From assembly GCF_018457165.1 (NCBI RefSeq), contig NZ_JAFMNX010000003.1:434001-498000 (forward strand): 64,000 nt of DNA. Reading direction: 5' to 3'. The translations under genes were made by a program, and so were the position numbers. Below are positions 17,876 through 49,564 of the stretch, one piece after another (within the stretch, counting starts at the first letter, position 1; each line of letters starts with the position of its first letter). Below the pieces are notes generated by a model. That model ran no database searches. It was not told where the DNA came from and worked only from the letters and a program-made list of their open reading frames with translations. Source of the stretch: Tianweitania aestuarii. Its GTDB lineage: Bacteria > Pseudomonadota > Alphaproteobacteria > Rhizobiales > Rhizobiaceae.

Positions 17876-17885
17876 CCAAAAGCAG

Positions 17886-17908
17886 TGTGTACAAAAATAA
17901 GGTACACA
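17886..17908. promoter_or_regulatory. brnTA operator palindrome
   Basis: TGTGTAC (17886-17892) and GTACACA (17902-17908) form a perfect 7-bp inverted repeat with a 9-nt spacer immediately upstream of the brnT start. The position and symmetry fit autoregulation by the BrnA ribbon-helix-helix protein; binding itself is inferred. Confidence 0.65.
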
Positions 17909-17922
17909 TTCAGCGCATTATT

Positions 17923-18873: not shown

Positions 18874-18951
18874 CGCTGGAGATTGCCGTCTTGGCAAGAG
18901 CGTAAGCGCCACAGGCTTCCCGCAATCGGTGCTGCACCTATCTAGAAGGTC

Positions 18952-23901: not shown

Positions 23902-24570
23902 ATGTTGGAGCCCATCAAGCTTCGGTCTCTCTCAAACGAGGCGCTTGATCGCGTTGTGCTTGCAATCACATCTGGCGAGTTCGAACCAGGCGAGAAGCTG
24001 TCGGAGTCCAAGTTGGCACGTCAACTTGGAATCAGCCGGGGTCCGGTCCGCGAAGCGTTGCATCAGCTGGAAGGCAAGCTGGTGCAGCGAGAGCCTCGTC
24101 TGGGTGTTCGAGTCATCCAGTTCGATCATGACTCACTTCAGCAGCTTTTTTATCTTCGGGAAGCGCTTGAGGGCATGGCAGCACGCCTTGCAGCGGAACG
24201 GGCACCCGATGATTGGGCAGATCGTGCTGAGAGTATGTTGCGCGGTGACGAAGCCAACATTCGAGATACAGGAAGTCGCGCTTACCGTCAGCGCTCAGTG
24301 GATGAAGATTTTCACCTCTTCATCGCACGCGCATCCGGGTGCGCTAATATTGAGCGAATTTTGCTCAACGAGGTCAACTACCAGCTGCGAATTGCGCGCT
24401 TAAAATCCTCGATGCGGCCCGGTCGCGCCGAAGAAGCACTCCGCCAACATTTCGCGATTGTAGATGCGATCCGCGCTCGCGATCCTGACAAGGCGGAAGC
24501 GGCCATGCGCATTCATATCTCATCGGCGCGCGATGGTTCCGTAGCCGTCTTAAGCGAGCCCATGGCTTAA
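23902..24570 (+). CDS. GntR-family regulator, FCD subfamily
   Basis: A 222-residue GntR/FCD regulator. The N-terminal winged helix contains GEFEPGEKLSESKLARQLGI then SRGPVREALHQLEGKLV. The C-terminal FCD all-helical domain (about residues 85-215) shows likely metal/acid-binding residues in DEDFHLFIA, LRQHFAIVDAI and MRIHI. FCD regulators usually sense carboxylic acids. GGAG at about 23888 precedes the ATG. It is the first gene of the island and lies just upstream of the seven-gene operon, whose promoter region carries an inverted repeat it could bind. Confidence 0.9.
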   Translation: MLEPIKLRSLSNEALDRVVLAITSGEFEPGEKLSESKLARQLGISRGPVREALHQLEGKLVQREPRLGVRVIQFDHDSLQQLFYLREALEGMAARLAAERAPDDWADRAESMLRGDEANIRDTGSRAYRQRSVDEDFHLFIARASGCANIERILLNEVNYQLRIARLKSSMRPGRAEEALRQHFAIVDAIRARDPDKAEAAMRIHISSARDGSVAVLSEPMA

Positions 24571-24626: not shown

Positions 24627-24653
24627 GCAAACTGTTGACAGATTGCAGTTTGC
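24627..24653. promoter_or_regulatory. Inverted repeat with embedded -35 box upstream of the lyase operon
   Basis: GCAAACTG (24627-24634) and CAGTTTGC (24646-24653) are perfect complements 11 nt apart. TTGACA at 24635-24640 fits a -35 box inside this repeat. The 10-mer TGCAAACTGT also occurs in the repeat upstream of the TRAP operon (33858-33867). It is the likely operator of the island GntR protein. Confidence 0.62.
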
Positions 24654-24714: not shown

Positions 24715-25584
24715 ATGAAAAGAAACCAGAAGCTCCGATCTCTCATCGCGCGCCGCGATGCAGTTACGGTTCCCGGTGCAGCGAATGCAATGTTTGCACG
24801 CGTGATCGAAGATCTCGGCTTCGAGGCGGTTTATGTTACGGGCGCGGGCATCGCCAATATGCGGTTGGGTGCGCCAGACGTCGGACTGACAACTGTGACC
24901 GAGGTTGCGGATACTGTCGCTGCCATTTCGGACGCTGTTGATCTTCCGTTGATCGTAGATGCGGATACCGGTTTCGGAAATGCCGTGAACACTGTGCGGA
25001 CCATCCGACTTTTGGAGCGGGCTGGCGCGTCGGCAATCCAGCTTGAAGATCAGGTATTCCCCAAAAAGTGTGGCCACTTCAACGGCAAGGATGTCATCCC
25101 GGCTTCTGAGATGCTGCAGAAGATAAAGGCAGCCGTGGATACGCGAACCGACCAAGACCTTCTGATAATCGCTCGCACTGATGCACGCGCGATCGAAGGG
25201 CTCGATGCGGCGTTGGACCGTGCGGCTGCTTATATCGAGGCCGGTGCGGACATGACCTTTGTGGAGGCACCGGCAAGCCTAGAAGAATTGCGCCGCATCG
25301 GCACTGAGCTCGTCGTTCCGCAGGTCGCCAACATCGTTTTTGGCGGGAAAACGCCTGATCCGGGCCGCAAAGCTTTGGCTGAGAACGGTTTCTCGATCGT
25401 GTTGTACGCCAACGCCGCTTTGCAGGCCGCATTGCGCGCATCCACGCAGGTTCTGAGCGCCTTGCGCGACGAGGGCAGTCTCGACGGCGTCGCCGATCTG
25501 CTTGCCGGTTTTGATGAGCGCCAGCGTTCGGTGAACAAGGATTATTGGGACGGTCTCGAAGCCAAGTACAAGCAAGCGCTTTAA
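24715..25584 (+). CDS. Isocitrate lyase/PEP mutase-superfamily carbon-carbon lyase
   Basis: A 289-residue member of the isocitrate lyase/phosphoenolpyruvate mutase superfamily, which includes 2-methylisocitrate lyase, 2,3-dimethylmalate lyase and oxaloacetate hydrolase. Metal-binding residues are in LIVDADTGFGNA. The catalytic loop is PKKCGHFNGKDVI, the K-K-C-G-H form of C-C lyases rather than of mutases. IIARTDARAIEG and MTFVEAPAS complete the barrel. The ATG at 24715 with AGGA upstream is preferred over an in-frame start at 24625, which lies in the operator. It would cleave a branched malate- or isocitrate-like acid to two oxo/carboxylic acids. Confidence 0.88.
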   Translation: MKRNQKLRSLIARRDAVTVPGAANAMFARVIEDLGFEAVYVTGAGIANMRLGAPDVGLTTVTEVADTVAAISDAVDLPLIVDADTGFGNAVNTVRTIRLLERAGASAIQLEDQVFPKKCGHFNGKDVIPASEMLQKIKAAVDTRTDQDLLIIARTDARAIEGLDAALDRAAAYIEAGADMTFVEAPASLEELRRIGTELVVPQVANIVFGGKTPDPGRKALAENGFSIVLYANAALQAALRASTQVLSALRDEGSLDGVADLLAGFDERQRSVNKDYWDGLEAKYKQAL

Positions 25585-25626: not shown

Positions 25627-26307
25627 ATGTCGCGCCCGTGGGATGGTATCATCAGCGAAGACGATCTTCGCGCTTATGACGCTGCCGGCTTTGGCCGTCC
25701 GACTGGACTGGGTAAACGCCCTGCGCTGGTGATTATCGATGTTCAATATCGCACAACCGGAACGCGTCCGATGCCGTTCTGGGAGGCGATCGGTGAGTTC
25801 AAAACATCCTGTGGCGAGATCGCCTGGGATGCGATGGCGAATATCGAGCGGTTGCTTCAGGTCTTTCGCAGCCGCAACTGGCCTGTTCTTTACCCTTATG
25901 TCGCGCCCAAGCAGTCCTTTGATACTGGCCGCTTAGGTGACAAGGTTCCGGCGCTGCTCGGCGTTGCCGCAAAGGGCTACGAGTTCCCGCCGCAGATTGC
26001 GCCTCGCGAAGGCGACATCCTGTTGCCGAAGAAGCATCCTTCGGCATTCTTTGGAACCCCGCTCGCCAGTTACCTGATAGACCTTGGCGTGGACTCCCTA
26101 GTTGTGGTGGGGTGCTCGACTTCAGGCTGCGTGCGCGGCTCCGTGGTGGATGGTTTTGCTTACAACTTCCGTTGCACCGTGCCGCAGGATGCTTGTTACG
26201 ACCGGTCATTCACCTCGCATGCGGTGAACCTTTTCGACATGGCTTATAAATATGCCGACGTGCTGTCTACCGAAGACACGCTTGCGGCGCTGGAAGCGCT
26301 CGCCTGA
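25627..26307 (+). CDS. Isochorismatase-fold amidohydrolase (N-carbamoylsarcosine amidase/maleamate amidase-like)
   Basis: A 226-residue cysteine hydrolase. The catalytic triad is seen as Asp in ALVIIDVQY, Lys in LPKKHPSAFFGT and Cys in VVVGCSTSGCVRGS. The N-terminus MSRPWDGIISEDDLRAYDAA and the Ser-Gly after Cys resemble N-carbamoylsarcosine amidase and maleamate amidases rather than true isochorismatases. It is expected to hydrolyse a small amide or carbamoyl group to an acid plus ammonia. GGGAGGAGAAAGCT before the ATG is a very strong ribosome site. It is the second gene of the island operon. Confidence 0.87.
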   Translation: MSRPWDGIISEDDLRAYDAAGFGRPTGLGKRPALVIIDVQYRTTGTRPMPFWEAIGEFKTSCGEIAWDAMANIERLLQVFRSRNWPVLYPYVAPKQSFDTGRLGDKVPALLGVAAKGYEFPPQIAPREGDILLPKKHPSAFFGTPLASYLIDLGVDSLVVVGCSTSGCVRGSVVDGFAYNFRCTVPQDACYDRSFTSHAVNLFDMAYKYADVLSTEDTLAALEALA

Positions 26308-26343: not shown

Positions 26344-27708
26344 ATGAGCGATGAGCTTGACGTTCTAGTAATCGGCGCTGGGGCCTGCGGGCTCTGTGCC
26401 GCGATCCAGGCTCACGACAAAGGCTTGAGCGTAGCCATTATCGAGAAGAACGAGCGGCCGGGTGGCAACTCAGCTCTCTCGACAGGATCAGTGCCTGCCG
26501 CCAACAGCCGATTTCAGCGTGAAGCAGGCATCAAAGACAATCCCGAGAAGTACTTTCGTGACCTGATGGGGATTGCTGGCGAAACCGAGGCGGAAAACCT
26601 TGTGCGCCGCATGACAGCTGTTTCCGCGGAAACGGTGGAATGGCTGATCGATGATGTTGGCTGCCGAATGGAGCTCATTACCGCTTACAAGCATATCGGG
26701 CATTCCGTATCCCGCCTACACGCTCCGCGCTCGCGCCGGGGCCAAGATCTGGTCGATGACCTCGTTGGCGCCGTGGAGCAACGCGACATTCCGCTGGCGG
26801 TTGGCAACTCTGCCAAAAGTCTGATCGTCGAGGATGGCCGGGTTGTCGGCGCTGTTGTGGATGCTGGCGACGGCGACGTGATGGAGATCCGTGCCCGCGC
26901 GGTGATACTTGCATCAAACGGCTTTGGCAACAATCGCGCGCTCGTGGAGCGCTACATACCAGAAATCGCCAGCGCACAGTATTTCGGCGCCCTCGGATCG
27001 GATGGTGAGGCGATCATCTGGGGTGAGGAGCTCGGCGCTGACTTTCGCAATATGGCAGCCTACCAGGGCTATGCCGCCGTGGCCGATCCTCATGGCTCGA
27101 TCCTCAGCTGGACCACCATCGAAAAAGGCGGCGTTCTCGTGAACGAGAAAGGCGAGCGTTTCGGTGACGAAAGTCTCGGTTATTCCGGCTATGCCAAGCA
27201 TGTGTTGGCCGAGGGTTCGCGTTCCTGGGCAATTTTCGACCAGCGGATCTTCGAGATCGCCATGCAGGAAGAAGAGTTCGCCGAGCTGTGGGAGCACAAA
27301 GGGCTCAAAAAGGCAGACACAGTCGCTGAAGTGGCTTCGGCGCAGGGGTTAGATGGCGCTGCCGCGGAAGCTGCCGTGGCTGCTTACAATGCGGCTGCCG
27401 AGCAGGGCGTGGCCGATGCGTTTGGTCGCACGGCTTCCGGCTTGGCGCCGTTGCAAGCGCCATTTTATTCCTGCCGTACCTTGCCAGCGTTGTTCCACAC
27501 CCAGGGCGGCCTTGCTGTGGATGATGATGCCCGTGTTCTGCGCAAGGATGGTTCGGTAATCGCCGGACTTTACGCCGGTGGCGGTGCTGCTGCGGGTGTT
27601 TCGGGCAAAGCCGGCGCCCTCGGCTACGCTTCCGGCAATGGGCTTCTTACGGCGGTGGCGCTTGGCCGACTGGCGGCGCGTGCGGCTGCTGCCGACATAG
27701 GGGCGTGA
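26344..27708 (+). CDS. FAD-dependent oxidoreductase, fumarate reductase flavoprotein-like
   Basis: A 454-residue FAD_binding_2-family protein. The dinucleotide-binding motif is VLVIGAGACGLCAAIQA with the downstream ERPGGNSALSTGS. A capping domain follows (about residues 230-340), then the C-terminal FAD contacts HTQGGLAVDDD and AGLYAGGGAAAGVSG. Relatives reduce or form the double bond of fumarate-like acids or 3-ketosteroids. The protein is soluble, without a heme or flavin-transfer domain. It overlaps neither neighbour but lies one nt before the MmgE/PrpD start. In this pathway it probably introduces or removes a C=C bond in a carboxylate. Confidence 0.86.
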   Translation: MSDELDVLVIGAGACGLCAAIQAHDKGLSVAIIEKNERPGGNSALSTGSVPAANSRFQREAGIKDNPEKYFRDLMGIAGETEAENLVRRMTAVSAETVEWLIDDVGCRMELITAYKHIGHSVSRLHAPRSRRGQDLVDDLVGAVEQRDIPLAVGNSAKSLIVEDGRVVGAVVDAGDGDVMEIRARAVILASNGFGNNRALVERYIPEIASAQYFGALGSDGEAIIWGEELGADFRNMAAYQGYAAVADPHGSILSWTTIEKGGVLVNEKGERFGDESLGYSGYAKHVLAEGSRSWAIFDQRIFEIAMQEEEFAELWEHKGLKKADTVAEVASAQGLDGAAAEAAVAAYNAAAEQGVADAFGRTASGLAPLQAPFYSCRTLPALFHTQGGLAVDDDARVLRKDGSVIAGLYAGGGAAAGVSGKAGALGYASGNGLLTAVALGRLAARAAAADIGA

Positions 27709-27709: not shown

Positions 27710-29086
27710 ATGACGCTTTCGGCTGATGTGATTGCGCGACTGCGCTCTGTGGAGCGCTTGCCGGACGGCGTTCAAGCGACGGCTGTTCGCCATTTCACCG
27801 ATGCGATCGGCGTTGCCCATGGTGCGGCAGGGTCGCAAGCGGGCGCGCATTGGCGGAAATACGCCAAAGCACAAACAGCACAGGGAACGTCCAGCGTAAT
27901 TGGCCTGTCGCATGGACTGCCTGCCGCAACGGCTGCCTTGGTGAATGGCGGGCTGATCCACAGCCTGGAATATGACGACACCCATACCGGCTCGATCGTC
28001 CACGGATCAGCGGTTCTGGCTGCAACTGCCTTAGCGGCCGGAGAAGCGGCTGGAGCGACCGGCGCGGCGGTGATGCGTTCCTATGCGCTGTGGTACGAAG
28101 TCTTCATCCGCTTTGGCCTAGCAGCCGCGGGCGGGTTTCAGAACCGCGGTTTCCAGCTGACTTCCGTGGGTGGCGCCTTGTGTGCTGCCGGCATTGCAGC
28201 CGATCTGAAAGGGCTCGACGCCGACGCCTCGCAGGCCGCTATCGGAATCGCGTTAAGTCAGGCGTCGGGTGTTTTCGAGTTTTTGACGAACGGGGCAACC
28301 GTAAAGTCAATGCATCCCGGCTGGGCGGCTCATGCTGGACTGATCGCCGCCGATCTCGCGGAAGCGGGTATGACCGGGCCTTTCACCGCGCTGGAAGGTA
28401 AATTCGGCTTGTTCCGGGTGTTCGCGGGTGATGATGCGGCGCCTCAGCGGTTTGCCGATATGCTTCCCGACATGGGTGAAGTTTGGCATCTCGACAAGGC
28501 AGCCTACAAGTTTCATCCCTGCTGCCATTACCTGCACCCCTTTATCGAGGCCGCGCGCTTGATGCAGGCGCAGGGCGTGCGGGCGGACCAGATCGCGAGG
28601 TTCGATTGCGGTGTGCCGAAGGGCGCTGCCGGCATCATCGCCGAACCTTGGGCTTCAAAGGTCGCGGCTGCGGGGCATCAAGCGCGCTGGTCGCTGCCGG
28701 TAACCGTGGCAATGCAGATGGTCGATGGTCGCGTGGACCTGGCGAGTTTCGAGGAACCTCTTTCGCCGGGTGTTTTGGAACTGGCGGAGCTCAGCGACTG
28801 GCACGTGTTGACCGATAGCGCGTTTCCCGCTCTGTTCGATGCTTATCTGCGCCTGACGCTCAAGGATGGGCGTGTGGTGGAAAAGCGGATCGACGATGTT
28901 TACGGCAACGGCTCTCGTCCGCCGGCGCAAGCTGACCTGGATGGCAAGTTTGCTGGCAACATGGAGCGGTTTGCACCAGGTGTCGATGCCGCGCCGCTGC
29001 TTGCTGCTTTGACGGGCTTGCCGAAGGCAAATGACCTCGGTGAGGTCACGCGCACGCTGCGATCCGTTGTTTCGTTGGAGGAGTGA
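27710..29086 (+). CDS. MmgE/PrpD-family protein, first copy
   Basis: A 458-residue MmgE/PrpD protein. The family includes 2-methylcitrate dehydratase, cis-aconitate decarboxylase and iminodisuccinate epimerase. Conserved stretches include HGAAGSQAG-like residues near 30-45, LEYDDTHTGSIVHGSAVLAA (residues 80-99), SMHPGWAAHAGLIAADLAEAG and YKFHPCCHYLHPFIEAA. It starts one nt after the flavoprotein stop. Beside an isocitrate-lyase-like enzyme it could hydrate or isomerise the substrate before C-C cleavage, like PrpD before PrpB. The exact reaction cannot be read from the sequence. Confidence 0.88.
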   Translation: MTLSADVIARLRSVERLPDGVQATAVRHFTDAIGVAHGAAGSQAGAHWRKYAKAQTAQGTSSVIGLSHGLPAATAALVNGGLIHSLEYDDTHTGSIVHGSAVLAATALAAGEAAGATGAAVMRSYALWYEVFIRFGLAAAGGFQNRGFQLTSVGGALCAAGIAADLKGLDADASQAAIGIALSQASGVFEFLTNGATVKSMHPGWAAHAGLIAADLAEAGMTGPFTALEGKFGLFRVFAGDDAAPQRFADMLPDMGEVWHLDKAAYKFHPCCHYLHPFIEAARLMQAQGVRADQIARFDCGVPKGAAGIIAEPWASKVAAAGHQARWSLPVTVAMQMVDGRVDLASFEEPLSPGVLELAELSDWHVLTDSAFPALFDAYLRLTLKDGRVVEKRIDDVYGNGSRPPAQADLDGKFAGNMERFAPGVDAAPLLAALTGLPKANDLGEVTRTLRSVVSLEE

Positions 29087-29090: not shown

Positions 29091-30491
29091 ATGGCAGCCT
29101 ATGATCTGGTTATCCGTGATGTTGAAGCCGTTCTTCCGGCGTCAGGGCGTACCGCTTGCGATATCGCGATCCGCGACGGCCAGATCGCTGCGATACTTCT
29201 GCCCGGCAGCTCTGTTGAAGCGTCAGAAATCCTCGATGGTAAGGGCCTGGTGGCGCTGCCTGGAGTCATCGACTGTCATCTGCATCTCGGTCATGGCAAA
29301 GACATATCGCGGCCGCGCGAACCGAAGGATGCAGATGTCGAGACCGCTTCGGCCGCGTTGGGCGGCGTAACGTGCATGATCCCTTTCCTCATGTCATCCG
29401 AGCCGCATGCGGCTGATTTCGGTGAGGTGAAGGCGGTAACGGAAGCGGGTGCGCGGATCGATTTTGGCTACCACTTCATTATCTCGACCGAAGCGCAGCT
29501 GGCGGAAGTGCCTGACTACATCAGTAAATTCGGCGCGCCGACGCTGAAGATCTTCATGAACAATCGCGGTGGGGAAGGCAAACGCCTCAATCTGCCCGAT
29601 ATCGACGACGGCTTTCTTTTCCGTTTGGCGGAAGCCGCCGCGCAGCATGGCGGCATGGTTGCTCCGCATCCCGAGAACATAGAGATCGCCTGGGTGCTGC
29701 GGGACCGCGCCATGAAGGCTGATCCCGACGGCCAAGCTGGGCTGGCCTCTTGGGATGCGTCACGACCGGATTTCGTTGAGGCCGAAGCGGTGCAGCGGGC
29801 TTCCTATGTTGCCAATGTTGCCGGCGCGCCGCTTTACGTGGTGCATACGTCGTCTGCGGCCGCGCTGGAAGCCGGCCTCGCGCGCCGCGACGCCGGTGAC
29901 GAGATCTATTTTGAGACCTGCCCCCATTACCTCACGCATGACATCACCGATCCGATCGGCGAAGTCGCGAAGATTAATCCGCCGCTGCGCAGCCGCGACG
30001 ATTGCGAGCGGCTGTGGCAGGCTATCGAAGAGGGCGACATCGACACTGTCGCCACCGATCACGTCCATCGCGACATCTCGAGCAAGGCCAACGGGATCTG
30101 GGCTGCTTCCCCTGGATGTCCGGGAATGGAAACGCTGCTCCCTGTCATGCTGACCGAAGGCTACCATGGCCGCGGTATTCCGTTGGAGCGATTGGTGGAA
30201 GTCCTGTCGGAAACACCCGCGCGTTTGATGGGGCTCGATGTGCGCAAAGGCACGCTTTCGGTGGGCAAGGATGCGGATATCGTGCTGCTTGATCTGAACG
30301 CTGAATGGACCCTGACGCGCGACAAGGTCGCATCTTCGGCCGGCTACTCGATCTACGAGGGCAAGACCTTCAAGGGCGCGATCCAACATACGTTTGTGCG
30401 CGGTCACACAGTCGTGCGCGACGGGAACCTCACCGAAACCAGCGCCGGCATCGGACGCTATCAGCATCGCAAACTCGGTTTCAGAGGTTAG
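29091..30491 (+). CDS. Dihydropyrimidinase/hydantoinase-like amidohydrolase
   Basis: A 466-residue cyclic amidohydrolase. The metal ligands are seen as DCHLHLGHG (residues 61-69), Lys in TLKIFMNNRG (likely carboxylated), His in MVAPHPEN and YVVHTSS, and Asp in VATDHVHRD. This fits dihydropyrimidinase, hydantoinase and dihydroorotase-type ring openers acting on cyclic amides or imides. The ATG at 29091 has GGAGGAG upstream and follows the MmgE/PrpD stop by 4 nt. In the operon it would open a ring whose amide is then removed by the amidase genes on either side. Confidence 0.88.
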   Translation: MAAYDLVIRDVEAVLPASGRTACDIAIRDGQIAAILLPGSSVEASEILDGKGLVALPGVIDCHLHLGHGKDISRPREPKDADVETASAALGGVTCMIPFLMSSEPHAADFGEVKAVTEAGARIDFGYHFIISTEAQLAEVPDYISKFGAPTLKIFMNNRGGEGKRLNLPDIDDGFLFRLAEAAAQHGGMVAPHPENIEIAWVLRDRAMKADPDGQAGLASWDASRPDFVEAEAVQRASYVANVAGAPLYVVHTSSAAALEAGLARRDAGDEIYFETCPHYLTHDITDPIGEVAKINPPLRSRDDCERLWQAIEEGDIDTVATDHVHRDISSKANGIWAASPGCPGMETLLPVMLTEGYHGRGIPLERLVEVLSETPARLMGLDVRKGTLSVGKDADIVLLDLNAEWTLTRDKVASSAGYSIYEGKTFKGAIQHTFVRGHTVVRDGNLTETSAGIGRYQHRKLGFRG

Positions 30492-30494: not shown

Positions 30495-31496
30495 ATGGTG
30501 GGCCCTCCCGTTGTCGCTATCATAGGGGCGGGGGGCACGATATCCTCGCTTGCGGTTGATCAGCGAGACTATGTCAATTACCCCGAAACGGGGCGCAAAT
30601 TGTCGGTTGACGAGGTGTTGGCGCATCTCCCCGAACTGGTCGGCTTCGCTCAGCTCATTCCGCTAAGCTTCCGCTCGGTTGGTTCAAGCGCGGTGGGTCC
30701 CGAGGATTGGCTGCGGCTGCACCGAACAATCACCGATGCGGTTGCCGCGCACCCGGAGATCGTTGGTGTGGTGATCCTGCACGGAACCGCTACGCTTGAA
30801 GAAACCGCCTTCTTTTTGGATTTGACGCTGCCAGTAGGCCGTCCCGTGGTGTTGGTGGGGGCGCAACGGCCGCTCAACACAGTGTCGTCCGATGCCGCCG
30901 CCAATGCGATAGCAGCCGTGCGCGTTGCCGCCGATCCAGGTGCGGCCGGGCGTGGCGTGATGGTTGTTCTGAATGACGAAATCCATGCCGCCCGTGTGGT
31001 GACCAAAAGCTCGACCCTCCGGCTTCAAACCTTCAACTCAGGTGCTGCGGGCTTGCTGGGTGTAGCCGACCCGGATCGGATCGTTTTCAACTACCCTGCC
31101 GAGGGCGTTGACCGTTTTCGCTTGCCAGTGGACGTCAGCTATCTGACGGAGCTTCCGCGCGTCGACATCTGCTACGCTTATGCCGGAAGTGACGGAACGG
31201 CGGTCCGCGCTTTCTTGGCCGCCGGCGCGAAAGGCCTGATTTCTGCAGGTTTCGCACCCGGTATGCCGGCCACGCAGGAACGGGCCGCTATAATCGAAGC
31301 GTCGCAAGCAGGCATAGCGGTGGTGCAAGCCAGTCGTGCAGGTCAGGGGCGAGTTGTTCGACGCGATTGGCTTAAGCAGAATGGCTGGATCGCAGCCGGT
31401 GCTCTCACCCCGCACAAGGCACGCATTTTGCTGATGCTGGGCCTGCTGGTTGAGCATGATCCGGAACAGCTGCAAACATTCTTCGATAGAGTCTAG
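30495..31496 (+). CDS. Asparaginase/glutaminase-fold amidase with Asp-to-Ala change in the active site
   Basis: A 333-residue L-asparaginase-like protein. The nucleophile Thr15 is in IIGAGGTISSL and Lys171 in VVTKSSTLRL is conserved. The second catalytic segment reads HGTATLEETAFFL where classical enzymes have HGTDTLEET. The Asp that completes the Thr-Lys-Asp triad and contacts the substrate amino group is thus Ala99. The amidase chemistry may be kept while specificity for alpha-amino amides is lost. A substrate such as a dicarboxylate half-amide is possible. It starts 3 nt after the hydantoinase-like gene. Confidence 0.85.
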   Translation: MVGPPVVAIIGAGGTISSLAVDQRDYVNYPETGRKLSVDEVLAHLPELVGFAQLIPLSFRSVGSSAVGPEDWLRLHRTITDAVAAHPEIVGVVILHGTATLEETAFFLDLTLPVGRPVVLVGAQRPLNTVSSDAAANAIAAVRVAADPGAAGRGVMVVLNDEIHAARVVTKSSTLRLQTFNSGAAGLLGVADPDRIVFNYPAEGVDRFRLPVDVSYLTELPRVDICYAYAGSDGTAVRAFLAAGAKGLISAGFAPGMPATQERAAIIEASQAGIAVVQASRAGQGRVVRRDWLKQNGWIAAGALTPHKARILLMLGLLVEHDPEQLQTFFDRV

Positions 31497-31512
31497 GCCA
31501 GGAGCCGGAACG

Positions 31513-32412
31513 ATGGAGTTGCGTGATCACGGACGATATGGCTACTCGGCGCTGCCGGAGCGGCCAGACTACCATTGGCCTGGCGGCAAGAGATTGGCGC
31601 TTTGCATCTGCAACAATATCGAGATTTTCAGCTACCGATCCGGATTAGGCAGTGATAGCGCCACACTGACCGCGCCGCAAACGCACCGAAATTACGCTTG
31701 GCGTGATTATGGCAACCGCGTTGGACAATGGTACCTGTTTGATCTGCTCGAAGAGTGCGGCCTTCCTGCTTCGCACAACGTCAACTCCGCCGTGTTGCGG
31801 CAGTATCCGCAGATCCTACAGCGGATCCTGTCGCGCGGTGACGAGATCGTCAGTCATGGCCGCTCGAATGGCGAACGGCAGGACGTTCTATCCGAAAACG
31901 AAGAGCGCCAGCTGATCGCCGAGGCGACCGAAGAAATTACATCCTTGGCCGGCTACCAGCCCAAAGGCTGGATGGGACCATACTTCGCGCAAAGCGAGGT
32001 CACGCTCGATCTACTTCAAGAAGCCGGTTATGAGTTCATGCTGGATTGGCCGGTTGACGATCAACCGGTGTGGATGCGGACGCGAGGCGGGCACATCTTG
32101 TCCGTCCCTTACTCCGTGGAACTGAACGATTCGCCTTCCATGGTGTTTCGCCAGGAAAGCATCGCGTCTTTCGAGTGTATGATCATCGATCAGTTCGATG
32201 AGATGCTGTTTCAATCAGCCAAGCGGCCCCTGGTTTTCTCGCTGATTACCCACCCCTTCATCATAGGGCATCCTTACCGGCTGCACGCATTGCGCCGGGC
32301 ACTGGCGCATATTCTGCTCCACAGAGACGAGATCTGGATCACCACCGTTGGCGGGGTGAACGCCCATATCCGCAGCTTGCCGTCCGGCATTCTGCCGGGC
32401 GCGCCCGACTGA
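31513..32412 (+). CDS. Polysaccharide-deacetylase-fold hydrolase, allantoinase PuuE/cyclic imidase-like
   Basis: A 299-residue protein with the polysaccharide deacetylase (NodB) fold. The typical metal motifs of true deacetylases are only partly present: the TFDD-type motif is replaced by LALCICNNIEIF, while HGRSNGERQ (residues 117-125) and LITHPFIIGHPYR are kept. This pattern is seen in PuuE allantoinase and metal-independent cyclic imide hydrolases of similar length. There is no signal peptide, so it acts in the cytoplasm. The ATG at 31513 has AGGAG at 31499-31503; the in-frame start at 31450 lies inside the asparaginase-like gene and is rejected. It ends the operon. Confidence 0.78.
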   Translation: MELRDHGRYGYSALPERPDYHWPGGKRLALCICNNIEIFSYRSGLGSDSATLTAPQTHRNYAWRDYGNRVGQWYLFDLLEECGLPASHNVNSAVLRQYPQILQRILSRGDEIVSHGRSNGERQDVLSENEERQLIAEATEEITSLAGYQPKGWMGPYFAQSEVTLDLLQEAGYEFMLDWPVDDQPVWMRTRGGHILSVPYSVELNDSPSMVFRQESIASFECMIIDQFDEMLFQSAKRPLVFSLITHPFIIGHPYRLHALRRALAHILLHRDEIWITTVGGVNAHIRSLPSGILPGAPD

Positions 32413-32442: not shown

Positions 32443-33798
32443 TCAGGCGGGGCTTGCCCGCAGCGCGATGATGCGGCGGCGAAAGCGGTCGAGCCCTTCC
32501 TTGAGCACTTCGCTGTCCCCACCGGCTGATTGTCCGATGCCGTGAAGCTCCTCAACCTCAAAATTGGCACATAGCAGTTGCTGCAGACGCTTCGGACCAA
32601 TGGGTGTGAATGGACCTTGCAAAGGCACTTGTCCTCTCGCTTCCGACCGAGCCCATTCCGCGCCGTAGCGGGACGCGCGGTTGCGAACGCTAAGCACAAG
32701 ATGGCCTTCATTGCGCAGCACACGGCGCACCTCTCGCAATATGGCTGCGGGATCGGCCATGTGTTCCAGCGATTGTGCGATCACCACAAGATCAACGCTT
32801 TGCGTCGCGAAGGGCAACGACGTGCCGCTGAACAAGGCACCCTCGACCGAGTGGGTGATCCCTTCGCGCGGCAGCCTGTCTTGGATAAAATGCAGATTGT
32901 TTTCGTGCAACTCCACGACAGTAAGCGATGCATCCAGGGGCAGCCTTCGTGCGAGTGTAACAGTGCTGGTTCCACCCCAAGGCATGAGTTCGGCCACCTT
33001 TGCCTCTGTGGGAAGAGACGGGATCAGATCCAGCTCACGCTCACTCGCTTCGCCTTGGCGCCGCGAGGTATAAACGCCGTTAAGCGGTGACTTGGCCCAA
33101 ACCGACCACGCGCGATAATCAGCCAGTTGAGCCCAGCTCCATTGTGTAGGATCCCATTGCGCATAGGGATTAGAGTCTCGGGAGACGGCATGGAAGGGAT
33201 AGGTATTCGCGTTTTCAACAGGGTAGATCGTGTTCTCAGGACGCTCGAACGTTTGAAATGAAACAACGCTGTTAAGCGGACGGCGCGGCGGCTTGCGTGC
33301 TGGCGCATCGGGATGTGCGCGACCCAAAGCAATGGCACCCTGACAGTCGAACACCGAAGGCAAATCAAGCATGGCGCGAACGCCTTCAGGATCACCGATG
33401 CCGGCGTTCCAGATTGCATGATACCCGCGCAAATGGGCCGAAAGCATCAGATGATATCCGGCCGCCGCAACGCCTTGAACAACGGAAAAGTTGTCATGCG
33501 TCCAACCTTTCTGAAAGCACAGGTAAACCAGAGCGGAGCAGGTGCGGAAATGCGGATTGCCGCCGGCCAGCTCGGCTGCCCGCGCGAGTTGCTGCGGATC
33601 ATCCACGATGATGAAATGCCAATGTTGCTGATTGCAGGAGGAGGGGGCTTCGAGCGCATCCGACAGCATCAGCAGCAACTCCTCGCGAGCAATGCGGCTA
33701 CCGTCGAAATCGCGGCAAGACAAGCGAGATGCCAGCCGAGACAAAATCGTCTGAGTGTCATTCGCTGAAAGGGTCTGCTGATCGTTTTGGATTTCCAT
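32443..33798 (-). CDS. Nitroreductase-methyltransferase fusion protein
   Basis: A 451-residue two-domain protein. Residues about 15-185 are a nitroreductase-family FMN domain (RLSCRDFDGSRI, APSSCNQQHWHFIIVDD, AIALGRAHPDAPARKPPRRP). Residues about 245-440 are a class I SAM methyltransferase (VAELMPWGGTSTVTLARRL, LTVVELHENN, SQSLEHMADPAAILREVRRV, GHLVLSVRNR). The linker holds YPFHAVSRDSNPYAQWDPTQ. The reading frame is continuous, so this is a real fusion and I know of no described example. It is transcribed against the seven-gene operon and diverges from the TRAP operon. The partner activity and substrate are unknown. Confidence 0.82.
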   Translation of the reverse strand: MEIQNDQQTLSANDTQTILSRLASRLSCRDFDGSRIAREELLLMLSDALEAPSSCNQQHWHFIIVDDPQQLARAAELAGGNPHFRTCSALVYLCFQKGWTHDNFSVVQGVAAAGYHLMLSAHLRGYHAIWNAGIGDPEGVRAMLDLPSVFDCQGAIALGRAHPDAPARKPPRRPLNSVVSFQTFERPENTIYPVENANTYPFHAVSRDSNPYAQWDPTQWSWAQLADYRAWSVWAKSPLNGVYTSRRQGEASERELDLIPSLPTEAKVAELMPWGGTSTVTLARRLPLDASLTVVELHENNLHFIQDRLPREGITHSVEGALFSGTSLPFATQSVDLVVIAQSLEHMADPAAILREVRRVLRNEGHLVLSVRNRASRYGAEWARSEARGQVPLQGPFTPIGPKRLQQLLCANFEVEELHGIGQSAGGDSEVLKEGLDRFRRRIIALRASPA

Positions 33799-33837: not shown

Positions 33838-33876
33838 TTGACACTGCCCCTAACTGGTGCAAACTGTAAACAGTTT
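33838..33876. promoter_or_regulatory. Promoter-operator region between the fusion gene and the TRAP operon
   Basis: AAACTGT (33861-33867) and ACAGTTT (33870-33876) form a perfect inverted repeat with a 2-nt centre, preceded by TTGACA at 33838-33843. The outer bases GCAAACTG match the half-site at 24627-24634. The shared sequence suggests that one GntR protein controls both divergent units and the lyase operon. Confidence 0.6.
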
Positions 33877-33945: not shown

Positions 33946-34962
33946 ATGATCAAGACCCTCTTAGGCTTTGGACTCGCAGCCGTCGCAGCGGCCTTCGCCT
34001 CTTCAACGGCTTCGGCGCAGGAGTTTCGGCTTAACTTCGGCCACTATCTGTCTAACTCACCTTTCGTGAAGGTAGAGCAGGATTTTGCTAAACGCGTCGA
34101 AGAGCGGACCGACGGACGCGTAAAAATCAATATTGTGTACTCAGGAGGCCTCGGCAAGGACTCCGAGTTGCTAGGCCTTGTCGGCCGAGGTGCCATTGAT
34201 ATGGCTGCGATTGTGCCGGGCTACTATGGAGATCAGCTAGTTTACAGCAAGGCTTTGCAGACGCCGTTTGTTTTCAGCAGCCCTGCACAAGCTATTGAGA
34301 TCGCTAACTACTCGTTCTCTGAGCTTCAGCCCTTTAAGGATGAAATGGAGCGACTGGGTGTGCATCGCTTGTTCCATCAGCCGGTCGACCCCTACTATCT
34401 GACGGGTAAAACGGATGCTTGTAAGTCGCTTGACGGCTTGCAGGGCAAGAAGATTCGTACGTTTGGCAGCCTCATTCCGCACATGATGTCGGCGGTCGGC
34501 GCCACGCCGGTCACGGTACCAGCTGGTGATCTTTACGAGGCTGTTGATCGCGGCACGATTGACTACTCCTTCGTCAACCTCGGCAACGTTAATGTGTACA
34601 GGCTCTATGAAGCGGGCAAGTTCACGTGTGGACCGGCTATGAACATCGCTGGTCACCTGGTTGTCATCGGCGATCGCACCTGGCAGCGCCTGCCGGATGA
34701 CATCAAGACGATCATCACTGAAGAATCCGTTCAGGCGCAGAAGGACTATGTTGCCTTCGTTGAATCGTCGGTGGCAACTTCAAGCGAAGCAATCAAGGCG
34801 GGTGGCGGTGAGATCATTGCAATCTCGCCAGAGATGCTTGCCGAGTGGAAAGAAAAGACCCCTGATCTCCTGCAAATGTGGGTTGATGAGCTGAAGGGCC
34901 GTGGTGAAGGCGAAGGAGCTGCAGCGGTTGCACAGGCCTGGCGTGAGCGGGTCGACCAGTAA
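33946..34962 (+). CDS. TRAP transporter solute-binding protein (DctP family)
   Basis: A 338-residue periplasmic binding protein with signal peptide FGLAAVAAAFASSTASAQ, cleaved before EFRLNFGH. The DctP fold is shown by VKVEQDFAKRVEERTDGRVK, YSGGLGKDSELLGLVGRGAIDM and the Arg-containing KKIRTFGSLIP, where family members bind the ligand carboxylate. SFVNLGNVNVYRLYEAGKF is also typical. It would deliver a small carboxylate to the DctQM membrane components encoded just downstream. Confidence 0.92.
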   Translation: MIKTLLGFGLAAVAAAFASSTASAQEFRLNFGHYLSNSPFVKVEQDFAKRVEERTDGRVKINIVYSGGLGKDSELLGLVGRGAIDMAAIVPGYYGDQLVYSKALQTPFVFSSPAQAIEIANYSFSELQPFKDEMERLGVHRLFHQPVDPYYLTGKTDACKSLDGLQGKKIRTFGSLIPHMMSAVGATPVTVPAGDLYEAVDRGTIDYSFVNLGNVNVYRLYEAGKFTCGPAMNIAGHLVVIGDRTWQRLPDDIKTIITEESVQAQKDYVAFVESSVATSSEAIKAGGGEIIAISPEMLAEWKEKTPDLLQMWVDELKGRGEGEGAAAVAQAWRERVDQ

Positions 34963-34990
34963 ACACTCTGAACAGTTCGTAGCAAAAGTG

Positions 34991-35500
34991 ATGGAGAGCG
35001 CGTTGAATCAACTTATCCGACGACTTGCCGTGTTCTCCGTAGCCATCGGCAGCATTGCCTTGTTGCTGTCGATGTTTCTTAGCGTCGGCGATGTGGTCGG
35101 AACGCAGATGGGGCAACCAGTCCCTGGTGCGCTTGAATTCACAGAAAGCACGATGGTTCTTGTGGTATTCGGCGGCATTGCTTGGGCGCAGATACGTCGT
35201 TCCCACATTCGCGTCGAGCTTGTTTACCTGCAAGTTGGACCGCGCATGCGCTCTGCGATGGATATCATTGCGTCCATAGCGGGCATCCTCTTCTTCGGTT
35301 TGATCATTTGGCAAGGCGCAGTAGAAGCTCTCTATAGCTGGCAGATACAAGAAGCGACGTCCGGTCTGTTGCGCTTTCCCCTTTGGCCCGCTCGCTGGAT
35401 CCTAGTGTTCGGCTCGACCATGATGGTCCTTCAGCTGCTGCTGGACCTTTGGTACGACCTGACGCACTTCGGAAACCCTCATCCGGTTGAGTTCGGCTGA
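34991..35500 (+). CDS. TRAP transporter small permease (DctQ family)
   Basis: A 169-residue membrane protein with four predicted helices (FSVAIGSIALLLSMFLSVGD, FTESTMVLVVFGGIAWAQ, IIASIAGILFFGLIIWQGAV, WILVFGSTMMVLQLLLDLWY). The motif RRSHIRVELVY after helix 2 is characteristic of DctQ. The ATG at 34991 is chosen over an upstream start at 34901 that would overlap dctP, although no strong ribosome site is seen. It acts with the large permease in the inner membrane. Confidence 0.9.
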   Translation: MESALNQLIRRLAVFSVAIGSIALLLSMFLSVGDVVGTQMGQPVPGALEFTESTMVLVVFGGIAWAQIRRSHIRVELVYLQVGPRMRSAMDIIASIAGILFFGLIIWQGAVEALYSWQIQEATSGLLRFPLWPARWILVFGSTMMVLQLLLDLWYDLTHFGNPHPVEFG

Positions 35501-35553
35501 CCTGCGGTTCTTGACCGTTTTTGTTCCCAGACCCTCGCCGGAAGGCAAACAAG

Positions 35554-36864
35554 ATGTTTGATCCAGCAACTGCTGCAATTATTGCCATTGGGCTGCTCTT
35601 TTTACTCATGCTTGCCGGTGTGCATATCGGCGTTGCGATGGGGCTGTGCGGCTTGCTCGGTATATACCTGTCGATGGGTGAGTTCGCGGCGCTGGCACAA
35701 GCTGGATCGGTGCCGTTTTCCACCGTCAACAGCTTCACGCTGGCCGTGATCCCGATGTTTATCTTAATGGGTTCTCTGGCAACACAGGCGCGGCTGACGA
35801 CAGACCTCTATGCCGCGGCTCATAACTGGTTTGCCAAACTGCCCGGTGGGTTAGCGATGACCACCACGATGGCGTCCGCAGCATTCGGTGCTGCGTCTGG
35901 ATCAACGATGGTGAATGCCGCCGTATTCACCAAAATGGCCATGCCCGAGATGACGGATGCAGGCTATGACAAGCGCCTAAGCTCAGGCTCGATTGCGTCG
36001 GCCGGCGTCTTATCCGCAATGATCCCGCCGTCCGTTCTTATGGTGATCTACGCCATTACAACCGAGCAATCAGTGGGCAAGATGCTAATTGCGGGCATAA
36101 TCCCGGGTCTCATGACCGCCTTTATCTTCTTGGGTGGCATCTATGTGTGGGCGAAACTGAAGCCCCATCATGCACCTATGCCAGAACACTCCGTATCCTT
36201 CTCGGACAAAATCGGATCCTTGAAGAACACCTGGGGCATCCTGCTTCTCTTCGCTCTGGTGATCGGCGGTATCTATGGCGGCTGGTTCATTCCAACCTAT
36301 GCTGGTGCAGTGGGAGCCTTTGGAGCTTTCCTGATCGTCTTTATGAAGCGTCGCGCTGACTTCGCGACCCTGCGCGAAACGTTTCTGGAAGCGATCCTGT
36401 CGTCCGCAACCATCTTCCTGGTTGTGATAGGCGGCATGCTGTTTGCCCGCTTTTTGACCTATACCGGACTTGTTTCGGAGGTTTCTGACTGGCTGATCAC
36501 ACAAGAACTTCCGCCTTTCGCTTACCTCATGGCCTTTGCGGTTCTGTTTCTGATCTTGGGCTGTTTCATTGAACCCATCGCCATCATCGTGATGACGCTG
36601 CCGGTCATGTTCCCTGTGATGATGAATGTTGGTTATGATCCGATTTGGCTCGGGGTCGTCGTGATCAAGATGTGCGAGATCTCCTTGATTACGCCGCCCG
36701 TTGGACTGAACGCGTTTGTAGTGCGTGCATCGTCCCCGGTCCCGCTACGGCTCGAACAGGTGTTTGCTGGTGTGTTGCCCTTTATCCTGATGGAAGTCGT
36801 TGCATTGGCTCTGTTGATTGCCTTTCCGAGCTTGGTGACCTTTCTTCCGTCGCTGATCTCGTAA
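35554..36864 (+). CDS. TRAP transporter large permease (DctM family)
   Basis: A 436-residue multi-span permease that drives solute uptake with the sodium or proton gradient. Family segments include VIPMFILMGSLATQARLTTD, AAFGAASGSTMVNAAVFTKM, GSIASAGVLSAMIPPSVLMV and LGCFIEPIAIIVMTLPVMFP. The ATG at 35554 follows GGAAGG. With the binding protein and small permease it forms a complete importer. Because it sits inside the island operon, its substrate is probably the compound metabolised by the neighbouring enzymes. Confidence 0.93.
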   Translation: MFDPATAAIIAIGLLFLLMLAGVHIGVAMGLCGLLGIYLSMGEFAALAQAGSVPFSTVNSFTLAVIPMFILMGSLATQARLTTDLYAAAHNWFAKLPGGLAMTTTMASAAFGAASGSTMVNAAVFTKMAMPEMTDAGYDKRLSSGSIASAGVLSAMIPPSVLMVIYAITTEQSVGKMLIAGIIPGLMTAFIFLGGIYVWAKLKPHHAPMPEHSVSFSDKIGSLKNTWGILLLFALVIGGIYGGWFIPTYAGAVGAFGAFLIVFMKRRADFATLRETFLEAILSSATIFLVVIGGMLFARFLTYTGLVSEVSDWLITQELPPFAYLMAFAVLFLILGCFIEPIAIIVMTLPVMFPVMMNVGYDPIWLGVVVIKMCEISLITPPVGLNAFVVRASSPVPLRLEQVFAGVLPFILMEVVALALLIAFPSLVTFLPSLIS

Positions 36865-36878
36865 TTGCGGGTAGGACA

Positions 36879-38276
36879 ATGAACGAAGCAAAGTCTTGTT
36901 CTGTTGAGAAGCACGAGGAAGTCGCAGAAGCGCTCAAGGCGCTTGTTCAACACACAACCCAACTGATATGGTCGGACTTGCCTGTTGATGTTCAACAGCG
37001 TGCCGCCACCGTCTTTTGTGATGACTTCACGTCGCTGATCGCGGCGCGGGAAGAGCCTGAACTGCAAGCCTTGAGCCAGCAAGCAGCGCGCGTAAGCGGC
37101 CCAGCCGAGGCGACGGTCCTGAACGGCGCGCGCCCTGCGCTCCGCCTGGATCGCTATTCGACGGCGCTGGTCAATGGCACGGCAGCAGACTGGGCTGAGT
37201 TGGACGGTGGCTACCGTGCGGTGGTTTGTCATGCCGCGCTCTACTGCATTCCCGCTTTGCTCGCAGAAGCCGAAGCAACAAATGCCAGTTTGCAGGACCT
37301 GTTGTTGGCGCTTGTTGTTGGCTACGAAACGGTCGCCCGCACCGCTCACGCGTTCAGCTTTCCCGGCTTGGTGCTGCATCCCCATGGCGGGCTCGCGACC
37401 GTCGGATCGGCGGCAGCGGTTGCCAAGCTGCGTGGATCCAGCGCTGACGAGACTTTCCGGGCGATCACTACCGCCGCGACCTTGTGCTTGCCGGGACCGT
37501 TCAACCATGCGGTGTCAGGCGCGCTGATCCGCAATGTGTGGCCTGGACTATGCGCGCAGAACGGCATCCGCGCTGTAGATTGGGAACCTCTGGGGATCAC
37601 CGGCAGCCCTTGGTCGATGACCGAAGTGTTCGCCGACATCTTCGGTGGCATTGTCGATGCTCGTGCATTTGATCAGGCGCTAGGAGAGGGCTGGAAGATC
37701 ACGCAAGGCTACCACAAAATGCATGCCTGCTGTCAGTACGCCCATTCCACCGTGGAGGCGATGCTTTCAGCTCTCGAACAGCGAAAGGTGGAGCCAGAGA
37801 GCGTCGAGCAAATCGTGGTCGCGACACACTGGAAGGGTCGCCGTCTGGATCGACCACAACCGGAAACCAGCTTGGCAGCCAAGTTCTCCATCCAGCATAT
37901 TGCTGCCGCTACCCTCGCTCAGGGCCACGCAGGCGCAACAGCGTTTAGTGCCGACAGCCTCGTCGATCCGGACATGGTGCGTCTGCGTGATATTGTTTCG
38001 ATTGATGCTTTTCCAGAAGACCTGCCATGGCCGAATGACCGCCCGTCGCATGTTAAGGTGGTGTTGAGCGATGGCAGCCATCTGGAAGGAACCTGCCTCA
38101 GCGCACCCGGCGGCGCGGATCAGCCGTTCAGTACGCAAGTTCTGCGCGACAAGATCCTGGGCAATCTTGCTCCGGCTTATCCCGGGGGGGCGGAATTGAT
38201 TTCCGCCGCTTTGGATCTCGATCAGGCCATTCTTGCCGCGCCTTGGCGCACGACGCTTGCGCAGATGGTCGGCTGA
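36879..38276 (+). CDS. MmgE/PrpD-family protein, second copy
   Basis: A 465-residue MmgE/PrpD protein, only distantly similar to the first copy. It shows ALVNGTAADWAELDGGYRAV where the first copy has the EYDDTH motif, HPHGGLATVGSAAAVAKL and the C-terminal YHKMHACCQYAHSTVEAM. The aspartates of the usual DD..H motif are altered (WAELDGGY). It may therefore catalyse a different isomerisation, hydration or decarboxylation. The ATG at 36879 has AGGA upstream and lies 14 nt after the DctM stop, so it belongs to the TRAP operon. The frame is open upstream inside dctM without support. Confidence 0.86.
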   Translation: MNEAKSCSVEKHEEVAEALKALVQHTTQLIWSDLPVDVQQRAATVFCDDFTSLIAAREEPELQALSQQAARVSGPAEATVLNGARPALRLDRYSTALVNGTAADWAELDGGYRAVVCHAALYCIPALLAEAEATNASLQDLLLALVVGYETVARTAHAFSFPGLVLHPHGGLATVGSAAAVAKLRGSSADETFRAITTAATLCLPGPFNHAVSGALIRNVWPGLCAQNGIRAVDWEPLGITGSPWSMTEVFADIFGGIVDARAFDQALGEGWKITQGYHKMHACCQYAHSTVEAMLSALEQRKVEPESVEQIVVATHWKGRRLDRPQPETSLAAKFSIQHIAAATLAQGHAGATAFSADSLVDPDMVRLRDIVSIDAFPEDLPWPNDRPSHVKVVLSDGSHLEGTCLSAPGGADQPFSTQVLRDKILGNLAPAYPGGAELISAALDLDQAILAAPWRTTLAQMVG

Positions 38277-38341: not shown

Positions 38342-39031
38342 TCAAGCTTCAGAAGCGCTGCCACCGGAAGAAAACAATAGCGTTAGACGGGCACGGAGTG
38401 CTTGATCGATGTGGGCGCGAGCGGCAGCTTCGGCTCCCGCTGCATCGCGGTTCAGTATCAAATCTAGCATCACCTGGTGCTCGACCAACGCCGCTTCTGA
38501 GCGTCCTTCTACTGAAAATGTCGTGCTCGGTAAAAGCGCAAGGGAGTCGTTCAGGTCGCCCAGCATGCGGCGCAGATAGCGATTATGAGCGGCTTCGTAG
38601 ATCGATTCATGAAACAGTGCATTGATGCGCGCGGCGGTCGCCGGGTCGCTCCGTTGCTGCTCGAACAAAGAGGCGATGTGCGTGAGCCCAGCTAGCTCGC
38701 CAGATGACGCATTTTCTGCCGCGAAAGCTGCGGCGCTGCCTTCCAGGCGAGCGCGAAGGGCATAAAGTTCGATCACCTGCGACCGATCCAAGGAGGCGAC
38801 GGTTAGACCGCTGGCGCCTGGTTGCACGAGGCCTCGAACCTGCAAGCGGGCAAAGGCTTCACGTACGGGTGTGCGGCTAACGCCAAGTACCGAGGCGATG
38901 TCTTCTTCCCGCAGGCGCGCACCCGACAGAAGTTGACCCGTGCGGATACGCTCCACGAGTGTGCGATAGACCCGATCGCCGCGATTTTCCTGCGTTTCGT
39001 TCTTCAAGCCGCCCACATGCTTCAGCCGCAT
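38342..39031 (-). CDS. GntR-family regulator, FCD subfamily (tcu side)
   Basis: A 229-residue FCD-type GntR protein. The HTH region is LLSGARLREEDIASVLGVSR followed by TPVREAFARLQVRGLV. The FCD domain includes ELYALRARLEGSAAAFA, NALFHESIYEAAHN, LVEHQVMLDLIL and AARAHIDQA, with the expected His ligands. The gene diverges from tcuA and the GTATAC-N4-GTATAC repeat lies between them. It presumably controls tcuAB in response to a tricarboxylate-type acid; in Salmonella that role is held by the unrelated LysR protein TcuR. Confidence 0.9.
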   Translation of the reverse strand: MRLKHVGGLKNETQENRGDRVYRTLVERIRTGQLLSGARLREEDIASVLGVSRTPVREAFARLQVRGLVQPGASGLTVASLDRSQVIELYALRARLEGSAAAFAAENASSGELAGLTHIASLFEQQRSDPATAARINALFHESIYEAAHNRYLRRMLGDLNDSLALLPSTTFSVEGRSEAALVEHQVMLDLILNRDAAGAEAAARAHIDQALRARLTLLFSSGGSASEA

Positions 39032-39096
39032 TCCGCGTTTTGCGGATGTCAGTTCCTACAACATAGCAGCATAGGGCAACACCCTTGTCATCAATG

Positions 39097-39112
39097 GTAT
39101 ACTTTTGTATAC
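39097..39112. promoter_or_regulatory. GTATAC-N4-GTATAC element between gntR and tcuA-like genes
   Basis: GTATAC occurs at 39097-39102 and 39107-39112, separated by TTTT, in the divergent promoter region. FCD-type GntR proteins often bind short palindromes centred on TATAC-like cores. The factor is inferred from adjacency. Confidence 0.6.
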
Positions 39113-39144
39113 ATAAACATGTAAGGCAGTCGGAGTGAACCTTG

Positions 39145-48514: not shown

Positions 48515-48515
48515 G

Positions 48516-49538: not shown

Positions 49539-49564
49539 GCCCCGTATCTTGGAATGTCAGGGAA

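What the first reader, a model, noticed from the sequence alone, without database searches (positions are those of the whole stretch)
32443..33798. Nitroreductase fused to a SAM methyltransferase
A continuous 451-codon frame joins a complete nitroreductase-like flavin domain to a complete class I methyltransferase domain. It is divergent from the TRAP operon and faces the amide operon. The fusion implies sequential reduction (or oxidation) and methylation of one compound, or removal of a toxic intermediate.
Basis: seen in the sequence. Interest (0 to 1): 0.7.

Follow-up and report, generated by a model that had tools for sequence, protein, structure and literature searches.

The report
Flavin reductase fused to methyltransferase-like domain
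This is a real and conserved bacterial protein that joins a flavin-dependent reductase to a methyltransferase-shaped domain whose usual cofactor-binding loop is gone, and it appears to be switched on together with genes that import and break down an unidentified nitrogen-containing ring compound.

Summary
Window 32443-33798 (-) is one open 451-codon gene. Its N-terminal nitroreductase-fold and C-terminal class I methyltransferase-fold domains are found, joined in the same way, in 34 other loci, nearly all alphaproteobacterial, at 47-66% identity. It is therefore not a frameshift or assembly artefact. Neither domain has a close stand-alone orthologue in the genomes sampled.

The interpretation 'reduction then methylation' is only partly supported. 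FMN-site residues are intact. In the methyltransferase-fold half, the SAM glycine loop D/E-x-G-x-G-x-G is replaced in 30/30 members by E/D-x-[M/L]-P-W-[G/S]-G-T (one member has G for P), with an invariant Trp. The adenine-contacting Asp is lost in 27/30. Canonical SAM methylation is thus doubtful.

The surroundings are informative. The gene sits divergently beside a TRAP transporter in a conserved catabolic cluster. A perfect palindrome AAACTGTNNACAGTTT lies between the fusion and dctP, and a one-mismatch copy lies before the lyase gene. These are the only two such sites in the 3.83 Mb genome. Related palindromes mark the same promoters elsewhere. The fusion thus belongs to one probable regulon for uptake and degradation of a likely cyclic amide/imide/ureide carboxylate. 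The substrate and reaction remain unknown.

The parts
32443..33798 (-). Nitroreductase / methyltransferase-fold fusion gene, 451 aa
   Evidence: single ORF; both Pfam domains in 30/30 homologues
33235..33753 (-). Nitroreductase-fold domain, residues 16-188 (FMN-type residues R25, S27, R29, S53, N56, Q58, K169, R172 invariant)
   Evidence: PF00881; alignment A1 invariants; Foldseek to PDB nitroreductases, TM up to 0.91 on target length
32446..33135 (-). Class I methyltransferase-fold domain, residues 222-451
   Evidence: PF08241; Foldseek of the domain model to SAM methyltransferases
32968..32991 (-). Altered SAM motif I, residues 270-277 E-L-M-P-W-G-G-T; Trp274 invariant
   Evidence: column composition; gapless alignment to GxGxG of solved MTases
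33861..33876 (.). Palindromic operator-like site AAACTGTAAACAGTTT between the fusion and dctP
   Evidence: genome-wide only this site and 24629-24644 at <=1 mismatch
24629..24644 (.). Second copy of the palindrome (1 mismatch), about 70 bp upstream of the lyase ATG at 24715
33946..34962 (+). TRAP transporter solute-binding protein DctP
   Evidence: PF03480
34901..36864 (+). TRAP transporter DctQ (34901-35500, start uncertain) and DctM (35521-36864)
   Evidence: ORFs; conserved next to dctP in the homologous loci
23902..24570 (+). GntR/FCD regulator, candidate reader of the palindrome
   Evidence: homologue cluster 10; its cluster mate at 38342 matches GntR and FCD
24715..25584 (+). Methylisocitrate-lyase / 2,3-dimethylmalate-lyase-like enzyme with KKCGH motif
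   Evidence: PDB search; motif read in the ORF
25627..26307 (+). Isochorismatase-like cysteine amidase (NicF / N-carbamoylsarcosine amidase-like)
26344..27708 (+). FAD-dependent flavocytochrome c / TcuA-like oxidoreductase
27710..29086 (+). MmgE/PrpD family protein
29091..30491 (+). Hydantoinase / dihydropyrimidinase-like amidohydrolase
30495..31496 (+). Asparaginase-like amidohydrolase
31510..32412 (+). PuuE / polysaccharide-deacetylase-like cyclic amidohydrolase

Best explanation
The gene encodes one polypeptide, fused since the origin of its family. An FMN-dependent nitroreductase-fold oxidoreductase is joined to a methyltransferase-fold domain that probably no longer binds SAM in the canonical way. 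It is probably expressed from a GntR-controlled divergent promoter together with a TRAP transporter and a catabolic operon. The most likely mechanism: a cyclic amide, imide or ureide carboxylate is imported. The flavin domain carries out a redox step on it or on an early product, probably reduction or dehydrogenation of a C=C conjugated to a carbonyl. The methyltransferase-fold domain binds and orients the substrate, or performs a non-methylating step. Hydantoinase-like and PuuE-like enzymes open the ring, the NicF-like amidase removes nitrogen, and the MmgE/PrpD and methylisocitrate-lyase-like enzymes feed the carbon skeleton to central metabolism. Shown here: the fusion, its conservation, the altered motif I, the synteny and the shared palindrome. 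Inferred: FMN binding, the redox reaction, loss of methyl transfer, GntR control, the substrate class and the order of steps.
For: Fusion conserved in 34 other loci, Pfam 30/30, and the identities of the two halves co-vary across members (r 0.87, Mantel 0/2000). Domain-only searches give 1e-92 / 1e-116 for the fused protein and only 4e-21 / 4e-14 for the best stand-alone proteins, so no split orthologue was found in 289 genomes of the class. Nitroreductase residues are invariant and the nitroreductase fold is matched in the PDB. Motif I is replaced in 30/30, against GxGxG in 12 of 13 stand-alone relatives with a readable motif and in solved MTases aligned without gaps. The catabolic cluster is conserved. 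In one other order, 20 of 36 genomes have a dctP relative, 10 with the fusion beside it; all four fusion-bearing loci read out there carry the cluster, and the eight read-out loci without the fusion lack hydA, ICL, isochorismatase-like, PuuE-like, FAD and GntR genes. The palindrome occurs at only two places in the own genome, both in this cluster, and at exactly two sites in four other fusion-bearing genomes, with none in two genomes lacking the fusion.
Against: No biochemical data. The acids at the ends of strands beta1 (E270) and beta2 (E296) are kept, and residues of the substrate side (Q342, E345, S370, R372, N373, QGP 394-396) are invariant, so an unusual SAM-binding site and methyl transfer remain possible. 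The cluster could act on several ring classes, and the position of the fusion in the pathway is not determined by genomics. Binding of the palindrome by the GntR protein is inferred; three Microvirga-type loci have neither the palindrome nor a GntR gene in range.
Confidence: 0.55

Rival explanations
1. Truly bifunctional enzyme: the flavin domain reduces or oxidises the compound and the C-terminal domain methylates it with SAM through an unusual motif I.
For: Complete class I MTase fold, best matches are SAM methyltransferase structures such as 3l8d and MitM; acids E270 and E296 kept; substrate-side residues invariant.
Against: Two of the three motif I glycine positions carry Met/Leu and invariant Trp; the motif III acid is present in only 3 of 30 (register); Pfam profiles skip motif I; a methylation step is unexpected inside a catabolic route.
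Confidence: 0.28
2. Detoxification or repair accessory: the fusion removes a reactive by-product of the pathway, such as an electrophilic unsaturated amide, rather than catalysing a main step.
For: Nitroreductase relatives include an enone reductase (4qlx); transcribed away from the main operon.
Against: It shares its operator-like site and promoter region with the transporter, as expected of a main pathway enzyme rather than a stress response.
Confidence: 0.12
3. Flavin- and ligand-binding sensor that controls transporter expression or activity, not a catalyst.
For: Nearly always beside the transporter (TRAP or, in Microvirga-type loci, a branched-chain-type ABC transporter), divergently transcribed; methyltransferase domain possibly catalytically dead.
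Against: No DNA-binding or signalling domain in the Pfam scan; nitroreductase active-site residues conserved; a GntR regulator is already present in most loci.
Confidence: 0.05
4. Frameshift or assembly artefact joining two genes.
For: None.
Against: Same joined architecture in 34 independent loci and 30/30 Pfam scans.
Confidence: 0

Closest known systems
Nitroreductase family PF00881 (NfsB, CLA-ER enone reductase 4qlx, cyclodipeptide oxidases 9exv and AlbA 8uc3)
   Same: Fold, RxSxR and PSxxNxQ FMN motifs; fold match to 9exv with TM 0.91 on target length
   Different: Mostly 17-28% identity in the fold matches; family-specific GGNxHFxxC and CFQKGWTH segments; fused C-terminal domain
Class I SAM methyltransferases (Methyltransf_11; 3mgg, RebM 3bus, MitM 8zc8)
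   Same: Fold, strand-end acids and motif IV-VI region
   Different: Motif I glycines replaced by [M/L]-P-W in the family; motif III acid mostly absent; extra conserved segment 210-247
SpnF (4pne), a methyltransferase-fold [4+2]-cyclase
   Same: Fold match; precedent for a MTase fold with a non-methylating reaction
   Different: SpnF is a stand-alone biosynthetic enzyme; different pathway, no flavin domain; still carries a canonical SAM site (general knowledge)
Hydantoin, nicotinate (NicF) and pyrimidine (RutB) degradation modules
   Same: Cyclic amidohydrolases plus isochorismatase-like amidase in one catabolic locus (NicF and RutB functions in PMC5806882)
   Different: No match above any NCBIfam equivalog cut-off for these enzymes; adds MmgE/PrpD, methylisocitrate-lyase-like enzyme, TRAP and the fusion

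Membership tests
Nitroreductase family (PF00881) | Profile match above the gathering score | tested here: met
   64.6 bits against 23.5; 30/30 members matched
Nitroreductase family (PF00881) | FMN phosphate and isoalloxazine residues (RxSxR, PSxxNxQ, C-terminal K/R) | tested here: met
   R25, S27, R29, S53, N56, Q58, K169, R172 invariant; assignment to the FMN site by analogy with NfsB from general knowledge
Nitroreductase family (PF00881) | FMN bound and NAD(P)H-dependent reduction | not testable with these tools
   needs purified protein
Class I SAM-dependent methyltransferase | Seven-strand Rossmann-like MTase fold | tested here: met
   Foldseek probability 1.00 to many MTases; PF08241 55 bits
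Class I SAM-dependent methyltransferase | Motif I D/E-h-G-x-G-x-G | tested here: not met
   [M/L]-P-W-[G/S]-G-T in the aligned positions in 30/30, one with G for P
Class I SAM-dependent methyltransferase | Acid at the end of strand beta2 (ribose contact) | tested here: met
   E296: E in 28 and D in 2 of 30
Class I SAM-dependent methyltransferase | Motif III acid (adenine contact) | tested here: not met
   column 324: D in 3 of 30, register
Class I SAM-dependent methyltransferase | Methyl transfer from SAM | not testable with these tools
   needs assay
Cyclodipeptide oxidase (AlbA type) | Partner small subunit (AlbB) and cyclodipeptide synthase nearby | tested here: inconclusive
   none among the conserved neighbour clusters, but no dedicated profile search for either was run and very short ORFs (<70-80 aa) were left out

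The most novel reading that the evidence does not exclude
A flavin oxidoreductase fused to a methyltransferase-fold domain repurposed for a non-methylating role acts as one enzyme in an undescribed catabolic pathway for an N-heterocyclic carboxylate.
Probability: 0.4. Interest if true: 0.65.

Novelty: new variant of a known kind. Interest (0 to 1): 0.5.

Why it matters
It defines a conserved fusion family and an associated probable regulon with a short and nearly genome-unique palindrome, so the pathway can be attacked directly: substrate screening through the TRAP binding protein, deletion of the fusion, and SAM and FMN binding tests. If the methyltransferase-fold half is truly repurposed, it would be another route by which this very common fold acquires new chemistry. 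It would also show that automatic annotation as 'methyltransferase' is misleading here.

Tried and rejected
Frameshift or artefact: rejected. Split orthologues: none at family-level scores in 289 genomes of the class. Plasmid copies: none in PLSDB. Literature on such a fusion or cluster: none found in the held library, and searches on cyclic imide and tetrapyrrole-derived maleimide degradation gave no matching bacterial pathway in titles and abstracts. I considered alkylmaleimide or hematinic-acid-type substrates because PuuE-like, NicF-like and methylisocitrate-lyase-like enzymes would fit in series. This stays a lead only, since hydantoin-type ureides fit the hydantoinase, racemase and carbamoylase-like genes of several loci equally well. 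Apparent long ORFs of 946 and 1184 aa in L012 and L028 are read as in-frame extensions across antisense transporter DNA in GC-rich sequence, not larger fusions; dctP is found there on the other strand. dctP relatives without the fusion belong to loci without the catabolic cluster.

Full report
Observation. The window holds a single minus-strand ORF at 32443-33798, ATG to stop, 451 aa. Pfam matches Nitroreductase (PF00881, E 1.6e-17) in the N-terminal half and Methyltransf_11 (PF08241, E 1.4e-14) in the C-terminal half. The full-length AlphaFold model built on 30 homologues is confident (pLDDT 88.6, pTM 0.86). Foldseek matches the N-terminal half to solved nitroreductases (for example 9exv, TM 0.91 on target length). 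A model of the C-terminal domain alone (pLDDT 88.8) matches SAM methyltransferases (3l8d, MitM) and the methyltransferase-fold cyclase SpnF.

It is not an artefact. One scan of genome contigs found 34 further loci encoding the same fusion at 47-66% identity: Rhodobacteraceae, Thalassobaculum, Microvirga, Aliihoeflea, Afifella and unnamed alphaproteobacterial assemblies, and one bin labelled Pseudomonadales. All 30 members scanned carry both Pfam domains. Pairwise identities of the two halves are strongly correlated (r 0.87, Mantel 0 of 2000), which is what one old fusion inherited as a unit would give. The fusion is rare: 2 of 397 genomes of its order, 2 of 385 of its class and 1 of 398 of its phylum sample, own genome included in each. 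Domain-only profiles gave 1e-92 and 1e-116 for the fusion, against 4e-21 and 4e-14 for the best stand-alone protein. I therefore found no split orthologue.

The nitroreductase half looks intact. Invariant residues include R25, S27, R29, S53, N56, Q58, K169 and R172, the positions of the FMN site in NfsB-type enzymes (general knowledge). Segments GGNxHFxxC (79-87) and CFQKGWTH (94-101) are a family signature and a likely substrate site (inference).

The methyltransferase half is altered where SAM should bind. The Pfam methyltransferase profiles that match nearly in full (PF08241, PF13649, PF08242) start at profile position 8-9, after the glycine-rich loop. Profile alignment to solved SAM methyltransferases is gapless across strand beta1: VLEAGCGIGAQT in 3mgg stands opposite vvevmpWgGtst (HMMER prints the query profile in this register). 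The loop reads [M/L]-P-W-[G/S]-G-T in all members (one has G for P), with Trp274 invariant in 30 of 30. Twelve of the 13 stand-alone relatives with a readable motif carry GxGxG by a simple pattern, and the thirteenth (L049) reads GVGTG by eye. The motif III position (column 324) is Asp in 3 of 30 only. The beta2 acid E296 is kept. Classical SAM use is therefore doubtful but not excluded.

Neighbourhood. Several loci are cut by contig ends. The usual order has the fusion divergent from dctPQM and convergent with an amidohydrolase. Microvirga-type loci replace TRAP by a branched-chain-type ABC transporter. Other members add AtuA plus DUF4387, Asp/Glu/hydantoin racemase, a carbon-nitrogen hydrolase and amidases. 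In the order of G772, 20 of 36 genomes have a dctP relative. Ten carry the fusion next to it. Of the ten without it, the eight that were read out have no hydA, ICL, isochorismatase-like, PuuE-like, FAD or GntR gene in range, while all four fusion-bearing loci read out have the cluster.

Shared palindrome. The 147-bp intergenic region between the fusion and dctP contains the perfect palindrome AAACTGTAAACAGTTT (33861-33876). The only other site in the 3.83 Mb genome at up to one mismatch is 24629-24644, between the GntR gene and the lyase ATG at 24715; the reversed-pattern control gives none. In most other loci the palindrome reads GTCAACNGTTGAC with the same AACTGTTkAC core. A palindrome of either type lies before the fusion/dctP pair in 25 of 36 non-redundant loci, and again before the lyase, AtuA or isochorismatase-like genes in many. 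In genomes G772, G786, G798 and G800 GTCAACNGTTGAC occurs exactly twice, on the fusion-bearing contig; G778 and G804, whose dctP loci lack the fusion, have none. This ties the fusion, the transporter and the catabolic operon into one probable regulon. The GntR protein as reader, and repression through an overlapping TTGAC-like -35 element, are inferences.

Function. The neighbouring enzymes are cyclic amidohydrolases (L-hydantoinase-like; PuuE-like), a cysteine amidase nearest to NicF and N-carbamoylsarcosine amidase (NicF makes maleate from maleamate, PMC5806882), an asparaginase-like enzyme, MmgE/PrpD (nearest iminodisuccinate epimerase and cis-aconitate decarboxylase) and a methylisocitrate-lyase-like enzyme. 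This points to degradation of a cyclic amide, imide or ureide carboxylate to central metabolites. Of the window enzymes scanned, none reaches a curated equivalog cut-off, so the substrate stays open. I commit to a redox role of the flavin domain on the ring or an early product, with a repurposed methyltransferase-fold domain, at 0.55 for the combined statement. Genuine methylation is kept at 0.28.

Novelty. Both folds are known. The fusion, the altered motif I and the regulon were not found in the held literature. Protein-architecture databases could not be searched, so absence there is not claimed.

Noticed in passing
38342-41638: A second GntR/FCD gene and a TcuA-like plus TcuB-like pair (tricarballylate-type dehydrogenase and electron-transfer protein, named by eye and by cluster) follow the cluster; TcuA/TcuB-like genes also lie near the fusion in L004 and L020.
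   Followed up: partly
36645-38276: A second MmgE/PrpD gene directly after dctM, so the cluster carries two; its listed ORF start overlaps dctM and the true start is probably further downstream.
   Followed up: partly
14041-21557: Lhr-like helicase, phosphoesterase, MBL-fold nuclease and ATP-dependent DNA ligase genes side by side, resembling the known Lhr/LigC-type DNA repair cluster (recognised by eye).
   Followed up: no
45795-57121: Dipeptide-type ABC transporter operon (fused ATPases, two permeases, binding protein), an oxidoreductase, then acyl-CoA ligase, thiolase-like and further genes: probably another catabolic island (recognised by eye).
   Followed up: no
L010:12834-15871: A hydantoin racemase-like gene, second hydantoinase-like gene and carbon-nitrogen hydrolase adjoin the fusion cluster in several Rhodobacteraceae-type loci.
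   Followed up: partly
L088-L093: A close dctPQM relative paired with MmgE/PrpD but without the fusion or the other catabolic genes: possibly a different substrate.
   Followed up: partly
L097: The fusion and several neighbouring genes are split over frames in this metagenome-derived copy, possibly sequencing errors.
   Followed up: no
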